Positions 1 to 28,513 of a stretch of 64,000 bases of DNA are shown piece by piece; positions within the stretch are counted from its first letter, which is position 1; each line of letters begins with the position of its first letter. The stretch covers positions 1-64,000 of the forward strand of contig JAPPGC010000065.1 in NCBI GenBank assembly GCA_028875125.1. Reading direction: 5' to 3'. Both the position numbers and the translations under genes were made by a program. Under the pieces are notes generated by a model. The model searched no databases. It was not told the DNA's origin and saw only the letters and a program-made list of their open reading frames with translations. The DNA is from Bacteroidota bacterium (lineage in GTDB: Bacteria > Bacteroidota > Rhodothermia > Rhodothermales > Bin80).

Positions 1-1800
1 AAATAGGGGATAGGGAATCTCAGTAAAAAATCCACTACAATGTCGAACTTGCGTCGTCACGATCATTGATGCGACGAACTACTTCTCGGTCCTGTCACGT
101 AGAAAGATGCCAGTTGGCCTAAGCAGGGTGCTGCCATGATAAATGCCTTCGACAAAGCTGGGCCTACATTGTATGTACTTCATGCGCAGGCTAAGAAGGT
201 AACGTGAGACTATGCATCCGAACGGTTTGGACCCCAAGTTCGGATCGATGGAGCAGGAGCACATAGCCGGTTCCGAGTTCCCAAATATCCCCAGGGGGCT
301 GGGCCATGTGACAAATGAATTTGCCGTCAGCACCAAAGGCGAGCCATCCACGATCTTCCCGGGGCCGGTCGTATTGGCGGATCCAGATGTGGCCATCACG
401 ACCAATCTTGACCCTGGAAATAGCTGGAAAAACGTCAGCCACCGGACGTTCCGGGCTGATTATGTCGTCATTATACATATCCCAGTCCGAAGGGTCAATT
501 CGCTCCCGGTAATCCTCGCGCCAGGCGCGTATGTCCGCACGCGTAACCTCGCGGTTTGGTTCTGACCAGCGGATAATCATCCGTAAGTTGAATTCATCGT
601 CCAGAACCTGTACCTCGGGTTTGCTTCCGTGTGCCAACACGATAGTGGACCCCAGCGCGTCAACTATGGCTCCAGCATCAAAGAGCGGGTACAACCAGAT
701 GGACTCGGGGCCCTCACTGACCATGCCATAGATTCTGCTGGGGAATCCGGGCAAGGTTGCGGACAAATGTTCCATCGGGATCGTGGATCTCCACGATCAA
801 CGTGTCTGGGGTGCCAAAGTCCGGGTCGCGGTTAAATGTCCGTCTGGCGTTCACGGTGTACCCGTTTTCGAGCACTCCTCCGGCATCTGACGGGTTTGGG
901 TACACCGGCTCGAGCCTGATCCTCCGAACGAATTGGCCTTGGGCCGTGAATACGGTGTAGCTCCATGGCCGGGTGTTTCCCACCCAAAGCGTGTCGCCCG
1001 CCGTGACCCACAGGATAAATGCATCGGTGAATTCACCGGGGCCTTCTCCGCGTTGGCCCATTGATCGTAGGTGACGCCCGGAAGCGTCGAATATACGAAC
1101 TTCGGCAGACGCACGATCAACCACCGCGACGGAACCATCTGACAGACGCCCCATCCCCCGGATCATAGAGAACCATTGGTTGTCGTCTTCCTCATTATCG
1201 CCGATGACCAAGACGGGTTCCTCGCTGAATGTGCACGTCGTTTCCGAACTTGCGGGCGTGCTGGTTACGATCTGCACGCTAGAGCTGTCAATGTCGATGG
1301 ATTCGGTTTCAGGTGGTGCTTGCTGGGAGCAGGCACCGAAGAGCAATGCAAGCGCGACCACAAGACTTCTTAGATACTGATTGGGCATTACCATTTTTGC
1401 TATGTCGTGCTGGGCGGCGATTAACGGCGACAGTGTCAAGAGACAACCGAATATAAAGTCGCAGGAGGCAAAAGGTTTGCCATGGGAATCTCGTCTGAGT
1501 TAGATCGGTCCGAAGAATGGCACAAACCTGGGTGGCCAATAGCAGACTACGACACTTATTGATGGCCTACCGGCATTGGTGGGGCGTGCGTTTCACGTGA
1601 CGGTGCTGCTTATTGACTAACTGAGGAACCACTATTGGAGCAAATGTGCACGGGTCAAACTAGGAATGCGATGACATTACAGCCTGATGCAATTAACATT
1701 CCCCAAAGGGTCCGATGCCCTGGAGAGTACTAAAACTTGGCACAGATACCAACCGCGCCCCGGCATCTATGAAGGCACATCGTTGCTCCGTGGTTCTGTC
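1..1800. repeat. Diverged tandem duplication, unit 1 (propeller gene plus flanks)
   Basis: DNA of roughly 1.7 kb occurs twice in tandem: once around the broken propeller gene at 191-1388 and again around the intact one at 1898-3088. The similarity extends past the genes. Bases ~100-190 match ~1795-1897 downstream of each gene, and ~1460-1560 match ~3160-3260 upstream of each gene, including a shared purine-rich 'gcaggaggcaaaagg' segment. Copies differ by many substitutions and small indels, so the duplication is old. Exact edges cannot be set by eye; the right edge given here (1800) is approximate, and the left edge may lie outside the window. Confidence 0.75.
191..1388 (-). pseudogene. Frameshifted 6-bladed beta-propeller lipoprotein (copy 1)
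   Basis: This copy encodes the same protein as the neighbouring intact gene (1898-3088), but in two frames. The N-terminal part (1388 down to ~720) starts MPNQ and carries a lipoprotein signal with the lipobox Cys at residue 20 (FGAC). It is followed by propeller strands with the 'GQRGEGPGEF' signature typical of the family. The C-terminal part continues in another frame from about 740 down to 191 (for example 'SIWLYPLF', 'IIRWSEPNREV'). Aligning the two copies around 721-743 shows one extra base here just before 'tggggaatcc', which shifts the frame. A longer open frame reaches 1439, but 1388 matches the start of the paralogue. A sequencing error could mimic this; otherwise it is a recently broken duplicate. 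The family's exact role is unknown. Confidence 0.8.
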
Positions 1801-1897: not shown

Positions 1898-3088
1898 CTA
1901 GGAAGGTGACGTGAGGCTATGCATCTGAACGGTTTCGACACCAAGCTCGGACTCATGGAGCAGGAGCATATAGTCGGCTCCGAACTCCCAAATATCGCCG
2001 GGGGGCTGGGCCATGTGGCAAATGAATTTGCCATCAGCACCAAAGGCGAGCCATCCACGATTTTCCCGGGGCCGGTCGTATTGGCGGATCCAGATGCGGC
2101 CGTCACGACCGATCCTGACACTCGAGATAGATGGGAAAACGTCAGCCGCCGGACGTTCCGGGCTAATCCTGGCGTCATCATACTCATCCCAGTGTGAAGG
2201 GTCAATTCGCTCCCGGTAATCCTCGCGCCAGGCACGTATGTCCGCACGCGTAACCTCACGGTTGGGTTCTGACCAGCGGATGATCATCCGTAAGTTGAAT
2301 TCGTGGTCTAGAACCTGTACCTCGGGCTTGCTTCCGTGTGCCAGCACGATAGTAGACCCCAGCGCGTCTACTTCGTCTCGCGCACCAAAGAGCGGGTACA
2401 ACCAAATATCGGATTCGCTGACTTGGCCAAGGGTTGCGTGGGGAATCCGGGCAAGGTTGCGGAAAAATTTCCCGTCGAGATCGTGGATCTCCACGATCAT
2501 TGTATCTGTAACGCTAAAGTCCGGTTTGCGAAAAAATGTCCGCCTAGAATTCACGGTGTACCCGTTCTCGAGCACGCCTCCAGCCCTTGATGGGTTTAGG
2601 TACACCGGCTCGAGCCTGATCCTCCGTACGAATTGGCCTTGGGCCTTGAATACGGAGTAGCTCCAAGGACGGGTGTTTGCCATCCAAAGCGTGTCCCCTG
2701 CCGTGACCCACAGGATAAAGGCATCGGTGAACTCACCGGGGCCTTCTCCGCGTTGGCCCATTGATCGTAGGTGACGCCCCGAAGCGTCGAAAATGCGAAC
2801 TTCGGTAGACGCGCGATCAACCACCGCAACGGAACCATCTGACAGACGCCCCATCCCCCGGATCATAGAGAACCATTGGTTGTCGTCTTCCTCGTTATTG
2901 CCGATGACCAAGACGGGTTCCTCGCTGTATGTGCACGTCGCTTCCGAACCTGCGGGAGTACTGGTTACGATCTGCACGCTGGAACTGTCAATATCAACGG
3001 TTTCGGTTTCAGGTGGTGCTTGCTGGGAGCAGGCACCGAGGATCAAGGCAAGCGCCACGACAAGGCTTCCTAGAGAATGATTGGGCAT
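1898..3088 (-). CDS. 6-bladed beta-propeller lipoprotein (copy 2, intact)
   Basis: A 396-residue protein with a lipoprotein signal peptide (residues 1-19) and lipobox LGAC, giving an acylated Cys20; it should sit on the periplasmic or outer-membrane face. The rest is made of repeated beta-propeller strands. One is a 'DGSVAVVDRASTEVRIFDASGRHL' type blade (positions ~2700-2830 on the DNA) followed by the 'GEGPGEF' signature seen in the Bacteroidota 6-bladed propeller family (DUF5128-like). A late 'IGRDGRIWIRQYDRP' strand is also characteristic. Such proteins are common in this phylum but have no settled biochemical role. It is the intact partner of the pseudogene at 191-1388. Start 3088 is favoured because the signal peptide begins directly there. 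Confidence 0.85.
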   Translation of the reverse strand: MPNHSLGSLVVALALILGACSQQAPPETETVDIDSSSVQIVTSTPAGSEATCTYSEEPVLVIGNNEEDDNQWFSMIRGMGRLSDGSVAVVDRASTEVRIFDASGRHLRSMGQRGEGPGEFTDAFILWVTAGDTLWMANTRPWSYSVFKAQGQFVRRIRLEPVYLNPSRAGGVLENGYTVNSRRTFFRKPDFSVTDTMIVEIHDLDGKFFRNLARIPHATLGQVSESDIWLYPLFGARDEVDALGSTIVLAHGSKPEVQVLDHEFNLRMIIRWSEPNREVTRADIRAWREDYRERIDPSHWDEYDDARISPERPAADVFPSISSVRIGRDGRIWIRQYDRPRENRGWLAFGADGKFICHMAQPPGDIWEFGADYMLLLHESELGVETVQMHSLTSPS

Positions 3089-20212: not shown

Positions 20213-21406
20213 ATGCTAGGAATTCTGATTGGGCCGCTCCTCACAAAGTGTAGCGCAGAAAAAGCTACCCGACTCCGAGAATGGCGACCAGAACTGGTTT
20301 GCGCCAGCCGTCTGCGGATAATCCAGTTAGTGCTGACCGTCTTCTTCATCACGGTGCTGCCCAGTGGCACTCTAGTCGGGCAGCCTCGTGCAGTTGAGAC
20401 TGAAATAGCATTCACCGAAATACTTCGCGTGGGTGAGGAAACGGACGAAAACGCCTACCTATTCGGTCTAATCATGGGTTTAGCTGTGGATTCCAAGGGT
20501 AGGATCCTAGTTGCTGACCTACGACCACCTTCGGTAGCAGTTTTCTCTGTGGACGGAGAACGGCTCGGTTCCGTCGGTGGGGTGGGTGAGGGTCCAGGAG
20601 AATATGTCTCTGTGGACGATGTGGATGTGGGCCCATCCGACTCAATCTACGTTATGGATAGCAGGAAAGGTATCTTGCATGTGTACGACCCAACAGACTT
20701 CACGTACGTGCGCCATACTCGATTCCCGTACGACGAAGACTGGGGAAGCGTCACATCAGCCGTAGGGGTGTCCGATCATGGCCCTATCATGCGGTACAAC
20801 ACGGTGATAATTCCCGATAACGTAGGGAAGCCCCGACACAGTTACGCTGTTCTTACGTCTTGGACGGGTGAGCGTATCCGTGAACTTGCCCGCCTGCCGA
20901 ACTTAGGTCTGTATGCTGGTCTCACTTCTGATGGCCAGCCATCCGCGCAGGTAATCAAGTATGCCCCTAGCTCGGTGTTCAGATTGAGTGCTAGTCAGCT
21001 TTTCTACTCGGGTTTGAATGCGGAAATTGACATCTTGGTGACGTCACTGGCCGGTGATTCGGTAAAAAGTATCCGGTGGCCTCACGATCCTGTGCCCTTG
21101 ACGCGCAACGATATCCCCTCGGGGTTAGACGCAGAAGCTCGCAAGTTGTACCCTGAGTTCAAGCCCGCGTATAGGTCTTTCGTAATCGATGATCAGGATA
21201 ACATCTGGATCAAGGACTACGTTGAGGCCCCCGCCACGGAAGCACGGTGGCAAGTGCTTGATTCTGAAGGCAGGCTGATCGGTCAGGTACTACTTCCAAG
21301 GACCCTGGGATTGTACGTCATTGATACCGCCAAAGCACTGGCTTACGGTGCCTTGCGTGGTGATTCCGGTGAGTATTTGCTGGTGGTGTACTCGGTCGAT
21401 TTTTAA
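20213..21406 (+). CDS. 6-bladed beta-propeller protein (third locus)
   Basis: A 397-residue propeller protein of the same family as those at 191, 1898, 26614 and 57751. A hydrophobic segment at residues ~36-54 may be an uncleaved anchor or a signal peptide following a misplaced start; the real start may be downstream of 20213. The blades include 'IMGLAVDSKGRILVADLRPP', then the hallmark 'GVGEGPGEY', 'VGPSDSIYVMD' and the late 'FVIDDQDNIWIKDY'. It has no lipobox, unlike the copies at 191/1898 and 57751. It stands alone, followed by about 1 kb of apparently decayed DNA. Function is unknown. Confidence 0.82.
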   Translation: MLGILIGPLLTKCSAEKATRLREWRPELVCASRLRIIQLVLTVFFITVLPSGTLVGQPRAVETEIAFTEILRVGEETDENAYLFGLIMGLAVDSKGRILVADLRPPSVAVFSVDGERLGSVGGVGEGPGEYVSVDDVDVGPSDSIYVMDSRKGILHVYDPTDFTYVRHTRFPYDEDWGSVTSAVGVSDHGPIMRYNTVIIPDNVGKPRHSYAVLTSWTGERIRELARLPNLGLYAGLTSDGQPSAQVIKYAPSSVFRLSASQLFYSGLNAEIDILVTSLAGDSVKSIRWPHDPVPLTRNDIPSGLDAEARKLYPEFKPAYRSFVIDDQDNIWIKDYVEAPATEARWQVLDSEGRLIGQVLLPRTLGLYVIDTAKALAYGALRGDSGEYLLVVYSVDF

Positions 21407-24830: not shown

Positions 24831-25060
24831 TGTACGCGAGACTGGTTGCATTACGTTGTGGATCCGCCGCCAGCACAATGTCATCATCATCGGCCCCACC
24901 GGAGTTGGCAAAAGCTATGTCGCGTGTGCCCTGGCACATAAGGCTTGCCTGGAAAACTTCTGAACGCGGTACTACCGTCTCTCCCGACTCATGGAAGCCC
25001 TGCAAACATAGTGAGGATCCAAAATACGCCGACTTTTCTCCTCTGTACTCGTTTAGCTGG
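24830..25060 (+). pseudogene. istB: Relic of IS21-family ATPase gene istB
   Basis: On the plus strand from ~24860 the translation reads 'RRQHNVIIIGPTGVGKSYVA' and continues 'CALAHKACLENF', a stop, then 'TRYYRLSRLMEALQT' and further stops. This is the Walker A region and following helix of IstB, the AAA+ helper of IS21-family transposition. IstB is normally ~250 residues; only ~60-70 codons around the P-loop survive, broken by at least one internal stop (~24955). No istA transposase or terminal inverted repeats are evident. It marks past insertion-sequence activity right next to the thioredoxin/propeller/peptide cassette. Confidence 0.8.
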
Positions 25061-25213
25061 CACAGTTCCTCGCTATTTGTGAAGTACATTACTAGGACCA
25101 AGCCTTCTTGAAAGTCTCGAGTAAAAGGCCGCGGACAATACCGATACAGGTATTCCGACGGGCAAATCCACCGGCCCGTTGCATGGTTCACTTCGCCCGG
25201 AATACTCACACGG

Positions 25214-25319
25214 TCCTGCGAGCTAGTGCCAGCAATCTCTGATCGGCCTGAAAATCACTCGCTGTCTTGAATGGCACGTCGCACGATCTCATCCAATTCA
25301 GTTGTCGTAAGTACGCCTT
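25214..25319. repeat. Direct repeat A at the 3' end of the DsbA-like gene
   Basis: About 105 bases, covering the last ~65 bases of the DsbA-like gene and ~40 bases beyond its stop, recur at 28408-28513 in the same orientation with roughly a dozen differences. Shared stretches include 'agcaatctctgatcggcctga', split here, and 'ggcacgtcgcacgatctcat'. The two copies bracket a ~3.1-kb segment containing the DsbA-like, propeller and Cys-rich peptide genes. Confidence 0.85.
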
Positions 25320-25926
25320 GGAAGAGTTTTCTTTCTACGATCAAAGTGGGGATGGCAGTGATTGCCAGAGATTCTCCCAATTGTATGTCGTCATCTATCT
25401 TTTCTGAGGGAACACGCTGTTCTACGCACTCCCGAAAACGAGGCAGATCTGGCATCCCAACAACCCGTGCTAAACCTATCCAATCCAGACTTGCGGACAA
25501 ACCCTGTTGTTCAAACAGTGCTTTATGATACACCTCAAATCGCCCTTGGGAATGGGCACATTCAGCCGCGACAGCAGATTGGTAGGCCGTGGTATGAAAT
25601 GAAAGGGGAAAATGTCTATGAACAATTGCTACCTCAGCCGGATATTTTTGGCGGATCTCATCCAAGGTCGGCCGAACTCTACTACAGAAAGAGCACTCAT
25701 AGTCATAGAATTCTACGATCTTGACCTTCGCCGTGCTTGACCCCAGAATTATACCATTCTCGGACGCTTGCCGCCAAGCATCGACATCAAGCTGCCGTAT
25801 TGGACTTGGGCTCGGCTCGGTCAGGTCATCCGGCGAAAAGAATTCCCGGCGTAATAGTATAGCCGTAATGGTTACAGCACATACTACCAGAACGGTAGTA
25901 AACACGTTTGAAAACGTATATTTCAT
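25255..25926 (-). CDS. DsbA-family thiol:disulfide oxidoreductase, membrane-anchored
   Basis: A 223-residue protein with an N-terminal membrane segment (about residues 8-26) that anchors or exports it, then a thioredoxin-fold DsbA/DsbG-like domain (Thioredoxin_4 type). The active site is C78-S-F-C81 within 'KIVEFYDYECSFCSRVRPTL'. The alpha-helical insert ('HFPLSFHTTAYQSAVAAECA') and the cis-proline loop 'AITAIPTLIVE' are present. It should form, isomerise or reduce disulfides in the periplasm. It lies in an accessory cassette with a propeller protein and a small 8-cysteine exported peptide, an attractive substrate by context. No Dsb partner (DsbB/VKOR/DsbD) is nearby. Confidence 0.88.
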   Translation of the reverse strand: MKYTFSNVFTTVLVVCAVTITAILLRREFFSPDDLTEPSPSPIRQLDVDAWRQASENGIILGSSTAKVKIVEFYDYECSFCSRVRPTLDEIRQKYPAEVAIVHRHFPLSFHTTAYQSAVAAECAHSQGRFEVYHKALFEQQGLSASLDWIGLARVVGMPDLPRFRECVEQRVPSEKIDDDIQLGESLAITAIPTLIVERKLFQGVLTTTELDEIVRRAIQDSE

Positions 25927-26613
25927 ATGGTTAAACTCTCTAACACAAGTCCAATCTGGAGATTATACTCTTTGCCACTCATCCAACACTTCCTTGAGTA
26001 CTTGTCTAATCTAAACGTCACGGTTGGCATCCATTATTGAATTTCCACGAGTTTATAGGCTTCAGCTTCCGTTAACCGATGCAACATTTTTCGCGTCGGA
26101 AACTCCCCCAAGAGACACGGAACAGCAACAAGTCTGACGAAAGTCTGACAATGCGAGACGGTCTCACTCTCGGCGACCCATGTTGAACGGGATCACTTGC
26201 ACGTACTGACCAAGGCTTTGTGGAAACCCTGACAGGGCCGGAAGAAAGTGAAACGATGAATCCACTGCATCCACCAAGCCCTGAGGGCCAAGATCAACGC
26301 CCTGGAGAAGCCGCAATACCTCCACCCAAAATCTTCCACCCGTCCCCGTATATCTGGTCGCAGAAAAACCCATGAACACCATCCTGGGAAATCCGCTCGC
26401 AACCCTCATAGGTCACGTGACATCTGTGATACTCAACACCATCGTGAAGCAAATCACAAGATTGCCAAGTACTCAAATACTATTATCGCTTCCCCGTGAA
26501 TGTCGCAAGGGAGTCAGTCCCAAGTAGCCCACCAACGCAGTGACCCTTCAAGTCGACTGAAGTTCACAATTTCGCAGATTAGTTGCATCGCCCGTTGATC
26601 CTATCGGAGGCCG
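25927..26613. other. Gap between DsbA-like and propeller genes, no gene recognised
   Basis: About 690 bases. The minus strand shows overlapping short frames in all three phases around 26164-26476 (up to 81 codons) with no motif I know. The region is GC-richer than its surroundings and might be a degraded gene, possibly of mobile origin. The promoter for the DsbA-like gene should lie in 25930-26050; none was clearly identified. Confidence 0.4.
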
Positions 26614-27810
26614 TTACCTCGTGATCGAATACACGACAACGTATGGACCGGAAGTATCAGAATAAAAGCTACCATAAGCACGCCCTCCTTTTATAACCTT
26701 TAGCAGCAGATTTGTGGATAACTCCATTTCGCCAAGTAACCTTCCAATTGGGTCTATGATCAGCCATTTAGCAAACTCAGCCTCAATATTTGGATATTTT
26801 CTTATCCAGATGTGACCTTGATCATCAACGACAAGCGCATCATAAGCAGGCTTGGTTTCAGGTAATAACTCGGACCCCAGAATAAATCTACGATTACTCC
26901 TTAATGTACGAGAAGATGAAACCATAGACTCAATTTCTTTTCGAGTGACGGGTACAGCTTCATGCTCCACTCTGATAGTTCGTACTGTCTCGCCGTTATC
27001 TGAAATGATCGAGATGTCAATCGTATCATTCCACCCAGTGTAAAGCAATCCGTCACGAAAAACAAAAAAAGGCTCTCTTCCAAAGGGAAGTGACATTACA
27101 CTAATTGACGAGCTTTCATCATTAGAAGATGTTCTAACCAGATTCTCTCTGGCAGGCAATTTCGCAATGGATGCCACTGCGACGGAACCTTGACGATCCA
27201 TCAGATTCACAACATCGAATCTTGACTCTCCGGGGTCAAATCCTCCTTTTGGATTTCCAGGAGAACGGTATCTTGGCGTGTATCTAAAAAGGTTTCCTTT
27301 TTTTGAAACGCCAAGCAATCTGGAAGGATGGGTAGGACTATCGGGATTAGCCATGCTTAGACTGTAAGCATATTGCAGCGTTCTTGGTTCAAAGACCGAC
27401 AGACGACCCGAACCCACGTCATAAACATAAATCGAATCTTGCGGACCAACGACCACGCCAGTGCTGCTTCTAAACTCTCCCGGCCCGTCCCCCTCTGAAC
27501 CTACGAAGCCAATAAAGTCTCCGTCATCTGAGAACGCCATGACTGGCACCTCGCCATTTCCACCAACAAAAAGTTGATCAAGACTATTCACCGCTATCGC
27601 TGCGTACTTATGGTTCTTGAACAGAATCATGTCCCCCCTAGCTTCATCTCCAACTCTAAATATCTCCGTGAGCTTGTACGGAGTCGTATTACTCTGTGCA
27701 CCAGCCTTGTTATGAAGACACAAAACGAAAAGAACGCATAGCAGAAAGGGCAAAGGGCCCGGGGATCGCTTTGCAAAACGACCCCCGGATCCCGATACGT
27801 GTCGTCTCAT
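26614..27810 (-). CDS. 6-bladed beta-propeller protein (cassette copy)
   Basis: A ~398-residue exported protein. The signal peptide is basic at first ('GGRFAKRSPGPL'), then hydrophobic, ending 'NKAGAQ' near residue 39. Propeller strands follow, with 'KYAAIAVNSLDQLFVGGNG', the hallmark 'GSEGDGPGEF', 'VGPQDSIYVYDVGSGRLSVF' (20 residues), and the late 'LVVDDQGHIWIRKYPN'. It has no lipobox. I prefer the ATG at 27810; the open frame reaches 27867. It lies between the DsbA-like gene and the Cys-rich peptide gene, all on the minus strand, with the peptide gene 70 bases upstream, so peptide and propeller may share a transcript. Codon composition is more A+T-rich than in the housekeeping genes around it. 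Confidence 0.85.
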   Translation of the reverse strand: MRRHVSGSGGRFAKRSPGPLPFLLCVLFVLCLHNKAGAQSNTTPYKLTEIFRVGDEARGDMILFKNHKYAAIAVNSLDQLFVGGNGEVPVMAFSDDGDFIGFVGSEGDGPGEFRSSTGVVVGPQDSIYVYDVGSGRLSVFEPRTLQYAYSLSMANPDSPTHPSRLLGVSKKGNLFRYTPRYRSPGNPKGGFDPGESRFDVVNLMDRQGSVAVASIAKLPARENLVRTSSNDESSSISVMSLPFGREPFFVFRDGLLYTGWNDTIDISIISDNGETVRTIRVEHEAVPVTRKEIESMVSSSRTLRSNRRFILGSELLPETKPAYDALVVDDQGHIWIRKYPNIEAEFAKWLIIDPIGRLLGEMELSTNLLLKVIKGGRAYGSFYSDTSGPYVVVYSITR

Positions 27811-27880
27811 AGGGGGAAATTGATTCAATGAATGAAAAAGAATGAAATCAGGAACGACGTAGAACAATATGTGACCTCAA

Positions 27881-28114
27881 TCAAGGATCAAGAGTGCAAT
27901 CCCCAAAAAGCTTCACGAATAATGAACAGTCTTTTGCCTTACAACCGTCGTCATCAGCATAGCACACATCTCCGCAACAGCTATGAGTACCGCTATTACA
28001 GCAAGCCTGGCCCGCGGCAGAACTTAGCGATGTGGCAGGAGGGGGAGCCGAAAAGGCCATCAACCCGAGGACAATGACCACGATGGCCAAAGTGTTTACG
28101 AACAGCGTCTTCAC
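27881..28114 (-). CDS. Small exported 8-cysteine peptide
   Basis: With a GTG start at 28114, the product is 77 residues: MKTLF, then a hydrophobic signal segment (about residues 5-23), then a mature region of ~45-50 residues rich in Cys, Gly and Asp. Eight cysteines are seen in the pattern CC-x5-CC-x3-C-x6-C-x3-C-x8-C. An open frame continues upstream to 28201, but its extra residues hide the signal peptide. An AGG lies just upstream of the GTG. No family is recognised; it lacks the NVEALA motif of Bacteroides peptides found beside similar propeller genes. The even, clustered cysteines suggest a disulfide-stabilised or metal-binding secreted peptide. It is the first gene of a likely peptide-propeller-DsbA series. 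Confidence 0.65.
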   Translation of the reverse strand: MKTLFVNTLAIVVIVLGLMAFSAPPPATSLSSAAGQACCNSGTHSCCGDVCYADDDGCKAKDCSLFVKLFGDCTLDP

Positions 28115-28207
28115 CTTTAAACCTATATAGTTTGGTGAATTGGGAATACCTTTCGGAGGCAAAGGTCTAACTGAACCGCCCCTGAACGCCACAACATACA
28201 AAATAAT

Positions 28208-28397
28208 ACGAAATAAATACGAATCGACAGATCCTGACCCTCAAGGACGAAATTTTATGGAGCGTTGTTACGAAATAAACACGAATTGAAAAATCCCGGC
28301 CCTAAAAGGCCGAAGATTTTACAGAGCGTTAATACGAAATAAACACGGATTGACAGATCCCAGCCCTAAAGGACGAAATTTTATGGAGCGTTCGATA
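28208..28397. repeat. Three tandem repeats of ~63 bp
   Basis: Three consecutive units begin at about 28208, 28270 and 28334. Each opens with 'acgaaataaa' and 'acga' or 'acgg', has a middle 'gatcc..(a/g)ccct..aagg(a/c)c' and ends 'a(a/g)attttat(g)gagcgtt'-like. Units 1 and 3 are closest; unit 2 carries a small palindrome GGCC-CTAAAA-GGCC. They lie directly upstream of the Cys-rich peptide gene on its 5' side and next to direct repeat B. Too few, too long and too diverged for CRISPR; they could be regulatory iterons or insertion debris. Confidence 0.85.
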
Positions 28398-28407
28398 TAA
28401 TTTCATT

Positions 28408-28513
28408 GTCCGGCGAGTTGTAGCTAGCAATCTCTGATCGGCCTGAGAATCACTCGCTGCCTTGAAGGCACGTCGCACGATCTCATCCAATTTAACTGTC
28501 GTATGTACGCCTA
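28408..28513 (-). pseudogene. Duplicated 3'-terminal fragment of the DsbA-like gene (direct repeat B)
   Basis: This ~105-base segment matches 25214-25319. On the minus strand it encodes 'TVKLDEIVRRAFKAASDSQA', compared with 'TTELDEIVRRAIQDSE' and a stop in the intact gene; small indels have destroyed the normal stop. Homology ends abruptly at ~28513, so only the tail of the gene is present. Same orientation as the intact copy. It is either the remains of a second whole cassette or a recombination/insertion scar. Confidence 0.85.

What the first reader, a model, noticed from the sequence alone, without database searches (positions are those of the whole stretch)
25214..28513. Thioredoxin / propeller / Cys-rich peptide cassette bracketed by direct repeats
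Three minus-strand genes lie between two same-orientation ~105-bp direct repeats: a DsbA-like oxidoreductase (CSFC), an exported beta-propeller protein and a small exported 8-cysteine peptide. A propeller protein plus an oxidoreductase beside a disulfide-rich peptide suggests a dedicated export or maturation module for that peptide. Repeats and a nearby IstB relic suggest the segment has moved or been duplicated. Seen directly: genes, repeats and order. Inferred: that they act together.
Basis: partly seen in the sequence, partly recalled or inferred. Interest (0 to 1): 0.75.

Follow-up and report, generated by a model that had tools for sequence, protein, structure and literature searches.

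The report
Cysteine-rich peptide, propeller and DsbA cassette
A Rhodothermales genome carries a small gene cassette for an exported cysteine-rich peptide, a six-bladed propeller protein and a disulfide-forming enzyme; the same trio recurs in distant relatives, so it is a real, apparently undescribed peptide system whose function has not been tested.

Summary
A profile of the 8-Cys peptide finds 21 relatives at 19 loci in 15 of 245 genomes of the class. Beside them: a propeller at 15 loci (11 by HMM, 4 by weaker profile and gene-order evidence), a DsbA-like gene at 14, both at 12. Usual order: peptide, propeller, membrane-anchored DsbA. All three genes are about 60% identical to the nearest cassette with pN/pS about 0.3, so the peptide is a conserved gene. 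The genome has 30 propeller matches; of 20 loci checked only this one has such a peptide upstream. A Longimicrobiales chromosome has a similar trio in another order. In one Bacteroidota genome all six NVEALA (PF14055) peptides sit directly upstream of a propeller; 'NVEALA' occurs in no held paper. The ~105-bp repeats are not element ends: they are the 3' end of dsbA, the outer copy a decayed duplicate. The IstB relic is real. Best reading: an exported disulfide-rich peptide with a dedicated oxidoreductase and a cognate propeller. Joint inheritance is shown; oxidation, binding and role are inferred.

The parts
27881..28114 (-). Exported Cys-rich peptide, 77 aa, 8 Cys, conserved hydrophobic leader (GTG start inferred; longest ORF reaches 28201)
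   Evidence: 61% identity and pN/pS 0.30 against G003; single copy in own genome
26614..27813 (-). Exported six-bladed beta-propeller protein (ATG start at 27813 inferred; longest ORF reaches 27867)
   Evidence: PF17170 E=4e-6; AlphaFold2 pLDDT 87 and NHL-propeller matches in the PDB
25255..25926 (-). Membrane-anchored DsbA-like thiol oxidoreductase (CSFC)
   Evidence: PF13462 E=8e-18, PF01323 E=2e-12; conserved TM and CxxC in alignment A2
28408..28512 (-). Relic of a second dsbA 3' end (outer copy of the direct repeat)
   Evidence: 87.7% identical to 25213-25318; frameshifted coding remnant
25213..25318 (-). Inner copy of the direct repeat = 3' end and flank of the intact dsbA-like gene
24868..25017 (+). 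IstB (IS21 helper ATPase) relic, interrupted by stops
   Evidence: PF01695 E=1.6e-13 on the first 50 codons, one stop masked
28204..28392 (.). Three tandem copies of a ~63-bp unit between the dsbA relic and the peptide gene, found nowhere else in the genome

Best explanation
A three-gene cassette for making and handling an exported disulfide-rich peptide. Shown: the peptide, a propeller and a membrane-anchored DsbA-like protein are inherited together, mostly in the order peptide-propeller-dsbA, across families of the class, with a similar trio in Longimicrobiales; the peptide is under purifying selection with its cysteines conserved. Inferred: the leader sends the peptide through Sec; the DsbA-like protein, held at the outer face of the inner membrane, oxidises its cysteines to disulfides; the propeller, exported by its own signal peptide, binds that peptide as a cognate partner (folding or carrier protein, immunity protein, or receptor). 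The mature peptide most likely acts outside the cell, as a bacteriocin-like effector (about 0.35) or a signal or surface ligand (about 0.25); the rest is open. The cassette duplicates in tandem, decays, and seems to be relocated near IS elements.
For: 21 peptide relatives at 19 loci; propeller beside 15, DsbA-like beside 14, both at 12, in five families. Equal divergence of the three genes and pN/pS about 0.3; correlated distances over seven trios. All 8 Cys kept between window and G003. Own genome: 30 propeller matches, but of 20 loci checked only this one has a Cys-rich exported ORF upstream. Two Longimicrobiales copies of peptide-dsbA-propeller. Precedent for a dedicated thiol oxidoreductase needed for a Cys-containing peptide toxin: bacteroidetocins (PMC6671954).
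Against: No biochemical evidence of oxidation or binding. DsbA is absent at some peptide-propeller loci (G071, two G014 loci) and the propeller at others (G032, G042, G128). The G072 DsbA-like protein has CPFS, without the second active-site Cys. Peptide-linked propellers are not one clade. The peptide model is of low confidence, so disulfide pattern and binding are unpredicted. Correlated distances partly reflect species kinship.
Confidence: 0.5

Rival explanations
1. Toxin-immunity pair: the peptide is a bacteriocin-like killer of relatives, the propeller is its specific immunity protein, and dsbA only matures the toxin.
For: One propeller directly behind each peptide; conserved leader with variable core in tandem sets of G300 and in NVEALA; patchy distribution, duplication and decay; a C39 peptidase domain near the G131 cassette.
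Against: No immunity was found for the nearest tested peptide toxins, bacteroidetocins. G032 and G042 have peptides without a propeller nearby. The same propeller family is widespread without peptides. No activity data.
Confidence: 0.25
2. Structural or regulatory subunit: the small Cys-rich protein is a fixed part or ligand of the propeller at the cell surface (nutrient capture or envelope sensing), with the thioredoxin-fold protein keeping its thiols in the right state.
For: Bacteroides surface propellers such as BtuG bind ligands (PDB matches 8bai, 8bmx); thioredoxin-NHL propeller pairing exists in one chain in plant SOQ1 (7djj among hits).
Against: Peptide cores vary more than a fixed subunit would suggest in G424 and G300; no TonB-type transporter was recognised beside the window cassette.
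Confidence: 0.2
3. Coincidence: three unrelated genes left beside each other in a repeat- and IS-rich stretch, the peptide ORF being spurious.
For: The propeller family is large in this genome and the region holds relics and repeats.
Against: Conserved trio in several families and beyond the phylum; purifying selection on the peptide.
Confidence: 0.03

Closest known systems
NVEALA peptides (Pfam PF14055) with TolB_like / DUF4221 / DUF5128 propellers in Bacteroidota
   Same: Small exported peptide with conserved N-terminal leader and variable Cys-containing core, directly upstream of a propeller, 6 of 6 in G424; one cluster also has a signal peptidase S26 and a CxxC lipoprotein
   Different: Leader motif and peptide profile differ (no PF14055 match); no membrane-anchored DsbA seen in G424; propellers from other Pfam families
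Bacteroidetocins (class IIa-like peptide toxins of Bacteroidetes; PMC6671954)
   Same: Cys-containing exported peptide with a locus-encoded thiol oxidoreductase whose deletion attenuates activity
   Different: Double-glycine leader and C39 ABC exporter, four Cys, no propeller; here a Sec-type leader, eight Cys and a propeller
DsbA-like thioredoxin proteins (PF13462/PF01323; nearest solved chain 3gyk)
   Same: DsbA fold by sequence and CxxC active site
   Different: Own subfamily with an N-terminal TM anchor (LVxCALxITALVVRRE consensus) that travels with the peptide
NHL-type six-bladed propellers (TRIM/Brat NHL, Bacteroides BF0058 4raa, plant SOQ1)
   Same: Six-bladed NHL fold by model and profile; SOQ1 joins a thioredoxin-like and an NHL domain
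   Different: Secreted single-domain bacterial protein, low sequence identity, no known ligand

Membership tests
PF17170-type six-bladed propeller | Match to PF17170 above its curated cut-off | tested here: met
   26.7 bits against 22.9, partial match of 74 of 321 positions; fold supported by model
DsbA-like thioredoxin (PF13462/PF01323) | Family match and CxxC active site | tested here: met
   65.6 and 48 bits, over both cut-offs; CSFC
DsbA-like thioredoxin (PF13462/PF01323) | Thiol oxidase activity in vivo | not testable with these tools
   Needs a bench test
NVEALA (PF14055) | Match to the PF14055 profile | tested here: not met
   No match in the window peptide, in 13 family members or above cut-off in 21 related genomes
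NVEALA (PF14055) | Peptide gene directly upstream of a propeller (feature seen here, not a published definition) | tested here: met
   G424 6 of 6; window family 15 of 19 loci
Bacteroidetocin | Double-glycine leader with C39 ABC exporter at the locus | tested here: not met
   Sec-type leader by eye; no such exporter recognised beside the window cassette
Bacteroidetocin | Antibacterial activity of the peptide | not testable with these tools
   Needs a bench test
IS-borne composite element | Free-standing terminal repeats bracketing the cassette | tested here: not met
   The repeats are dsbA 3'-end sequence, one copy being the gene itself

The most novel reading that the evidence does not exclude
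Exported peptide-propeller pairs form one undescribed class across Bacteroidota and Gemmatimonadota: conserved leader, variable Cys-rich core, one cognate propeller per peptide, often a dedicated thioredoxin-fold enzyme. NVEALA and this Rhodothermia family would be two branches, and the propeller would be a new kind of peptide receptor or immunity protein.
Probability: 0.35. Interest if true: 0.82.

Novelty: new variant of a known kind. Interest (0 to 1): 0.62.

Why it matters
Bacteroidota genomes hold many propellers of unknown function (30 matches in this genome alone). A conserved peptide partner turns one subset of them into a testable question: which peptide does each propeller bind? It also offers a family of disulfide-rich secreted peptides with their own oxidoreductase, and gives the unstudied NVEALA family a context.

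Tried and rejected
AlphaFold2 on the peptide: pLDDT 62, pTM 0.28, unusable. PF14055 in the order: nothing over the cut-off. Single-sequence peptide search: most hits above E=1e-3 were noise, so a profile was used. The genome-contig scan with the DsbA alignment returned mainly generic DsbA proteins; useful were G003 (JAJECV01), G011 (OX638318) and one Longimicrobiales record. Chryseobacterium and Pedobacter DsbA loci: no peptide. PADLOC and phage collections: nothing. First pN/pS script timed out. The idea that the repeats are element ends was rejected. The idea that peptide-linked propellers form one clade was not borne out. An A1 hit in G050:C21 was discarded as a likely chance frame. G192 is not counted among the 15 loci with a propeller: the ORF after its peptide looked propeller-like by eye but no HMM match was found. 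G490: peptide-like hit with neither partner recognised.

Full report
What is in the window. On the minus strand lie, in transcription order, a 77-aa peptide gene (28114-27881, GTG start inferred), an exported propeller (27813-26614) and a DsbA-like gene (25926-25255). The longer ORFs listed for the peptide (to 28201) and the propeller (to 27867) are upstream extensions. The genome is a 3.3-Mb, 129-contig assembly, 98% complete.

The repeats. The two ~105-bp copies (25213-25318 and 28408-28512; 87.7%) are real, but the inner one is the last 21 codons (stop included) and 3' flank of dsbA, and the outer one a frameshifted relic of the same stretch. G006 has a frameshifted dsbA upstream of its decayed peptide, and a propeller C-terminal relic downstream of its propeller. 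The simplest account is tandem duplication followed by decay. The IstB relic is confirmed (PF01695 E=1.6e-13). In G003 the cassette lies at the other end of the same rne-gltA-sdh gene block, again beside an IstB-like fragment (by eye), with dsbA in the opposite orientation; other cassettes have transposase-like ORFs nearby (G011, G014, named by eye). So the segment has duplicated, and probably moved.

Conserved adjacency. A profile of the peptide (A1, then A3) finds, at E<=1e-3, 21 peptides at 19 loci in 15 of 245 genomes of the class. A propeller stands directly beside 15 of the loci: 11 by HMM (G000, G003 twice, G006, G014 three times, G026 as a fragment, G071, G072, G131), and four in one genus (G041 twice, G050, G061) whose propellers the HMM misses and which rest on a GEGPE-type motif, gene order and a weak profile-profile match (hhalign E=4e-4, probability 35%). 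A DsbA-like gene lies within 4 kb at 14 loci (frameshifted or partial in G006, G014 and one G041 copy), both at 12, in families f1, f3, f12, f14 and f16. No propeller was found at G032 and G042 (two peptides plus dsbA) and G128; G192 is unconfirmed. No DsbA: G071, G128, G192 and two of the three G014 loci. G061:C22 is a further peptide-propeller locus found only at E=0.008 with A1. Beyond the class, a Longimicrobiales chromosome has two copies of a peptide-dsbA-propeller trio (weak peptide E=0.036, but clear context and a 91% identical second copy), and G300, same phylum, has tandem peptide-propeller pairs.

The peptide is a real gene. Window against G003: peptide, propeller and DsbA are 61, 60 and 58% identical with pN/pS 0.30, 0.35 and 0.32; all 8 Cys are kept. 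Across seven complete trios the distance matrices correlate (peptide-propeller r=0.87, 1 of 5040 permutations; propeller-dsbA 0.80, 14; peptide-dsbA 0.61, 165). This shows joint inheritance, not binding, since species relatedness is not removed.

Specificity. The genome has 30 matches to the propeller; in the 20 loci examined only the window's has a Cys-rich exported ORF directly upstream. Peptide-linked propellers are spread over several lineages, and an unlinked 58% paralogue is nested among linked ones. The peptide, not one propeller lineage, is the constant.

The parallel. In G424 each of six PF14055 (NVEALA) peptides is directly followed, on the same strand, by a propeller of TolB_like, DUF4221 or DUF5128 type, all six by Pfam. 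One of these clusters adds a peptidase S26 (E=1.8e-29) and a lipoprotein with a CxxC motif by eye. The window family is not NVEALA by profile. No held paper contains the word NVEALA; the hits for the text PF14055 were Plasmodium papers, judged from titles.

How it may work. Shown: co-inheritance, DsbA-family and propeller-family membership, selection on the peptide. By eye: export signals. Inferred from family knowledge: Sec export, disulfide formation by the DsbA-like protein, peptide binding by the propeller. Bacteroidetocins give the nearest tested precedent: deletion of the thiol oxidoreductase gene attenuates the toxin (PMC6671954). The propeller's likely mature N-terminus (AGA-Q) fits the Bacteroidetes Q-rule (PMC10653852, abstract). 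Whether the peptide is a toxin, a signal or a subunit is open.

Noticed in passing
window 28204-28392: Three tandem copies of a ~63-bp unit between the dsbA relic and the peptide gene; a genome search found them only here. Role unknown.
   Followed up: partly
window 191-1439 and 1898-3088: Two near-identical propeller ORFs in tandem, the first split by an apparent frameshift; neither checked for a peptide.
   Followed up: no
window 20213-21406: A second propeller of the same family 5 kb from the cassette, on the other strand, without a Cys-rich exported ORF upstream.
   Followed up: partly
L222 3504-4157 (G072): The DsbA-like protein after this peptide-propeller pair has CPFS in place of CxxC, so it may not be an oxidase of the usual kind.
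   Followed up: no
L214 5219-9356 (G131): Cassette with extra genes: C39 peptidase domain and AraC-type regulator upstream, MauE/DoxX protein downstream of dsbA. An AraC-type gene also precedes the peptide in G026 and, by eye, in G128.
   Followed up: partly
L212 13201-17653 (G424): NVEALA cluster with its own signal peptidase S26 and a CxxC lipoprotein behind a peptide-propeller pair.
   Followed up: partly
L231 3407-8938 (G300): Three tandem peptides with almost identical leaders and different cores, followed by propeller ORFs.
   Followed up: partly
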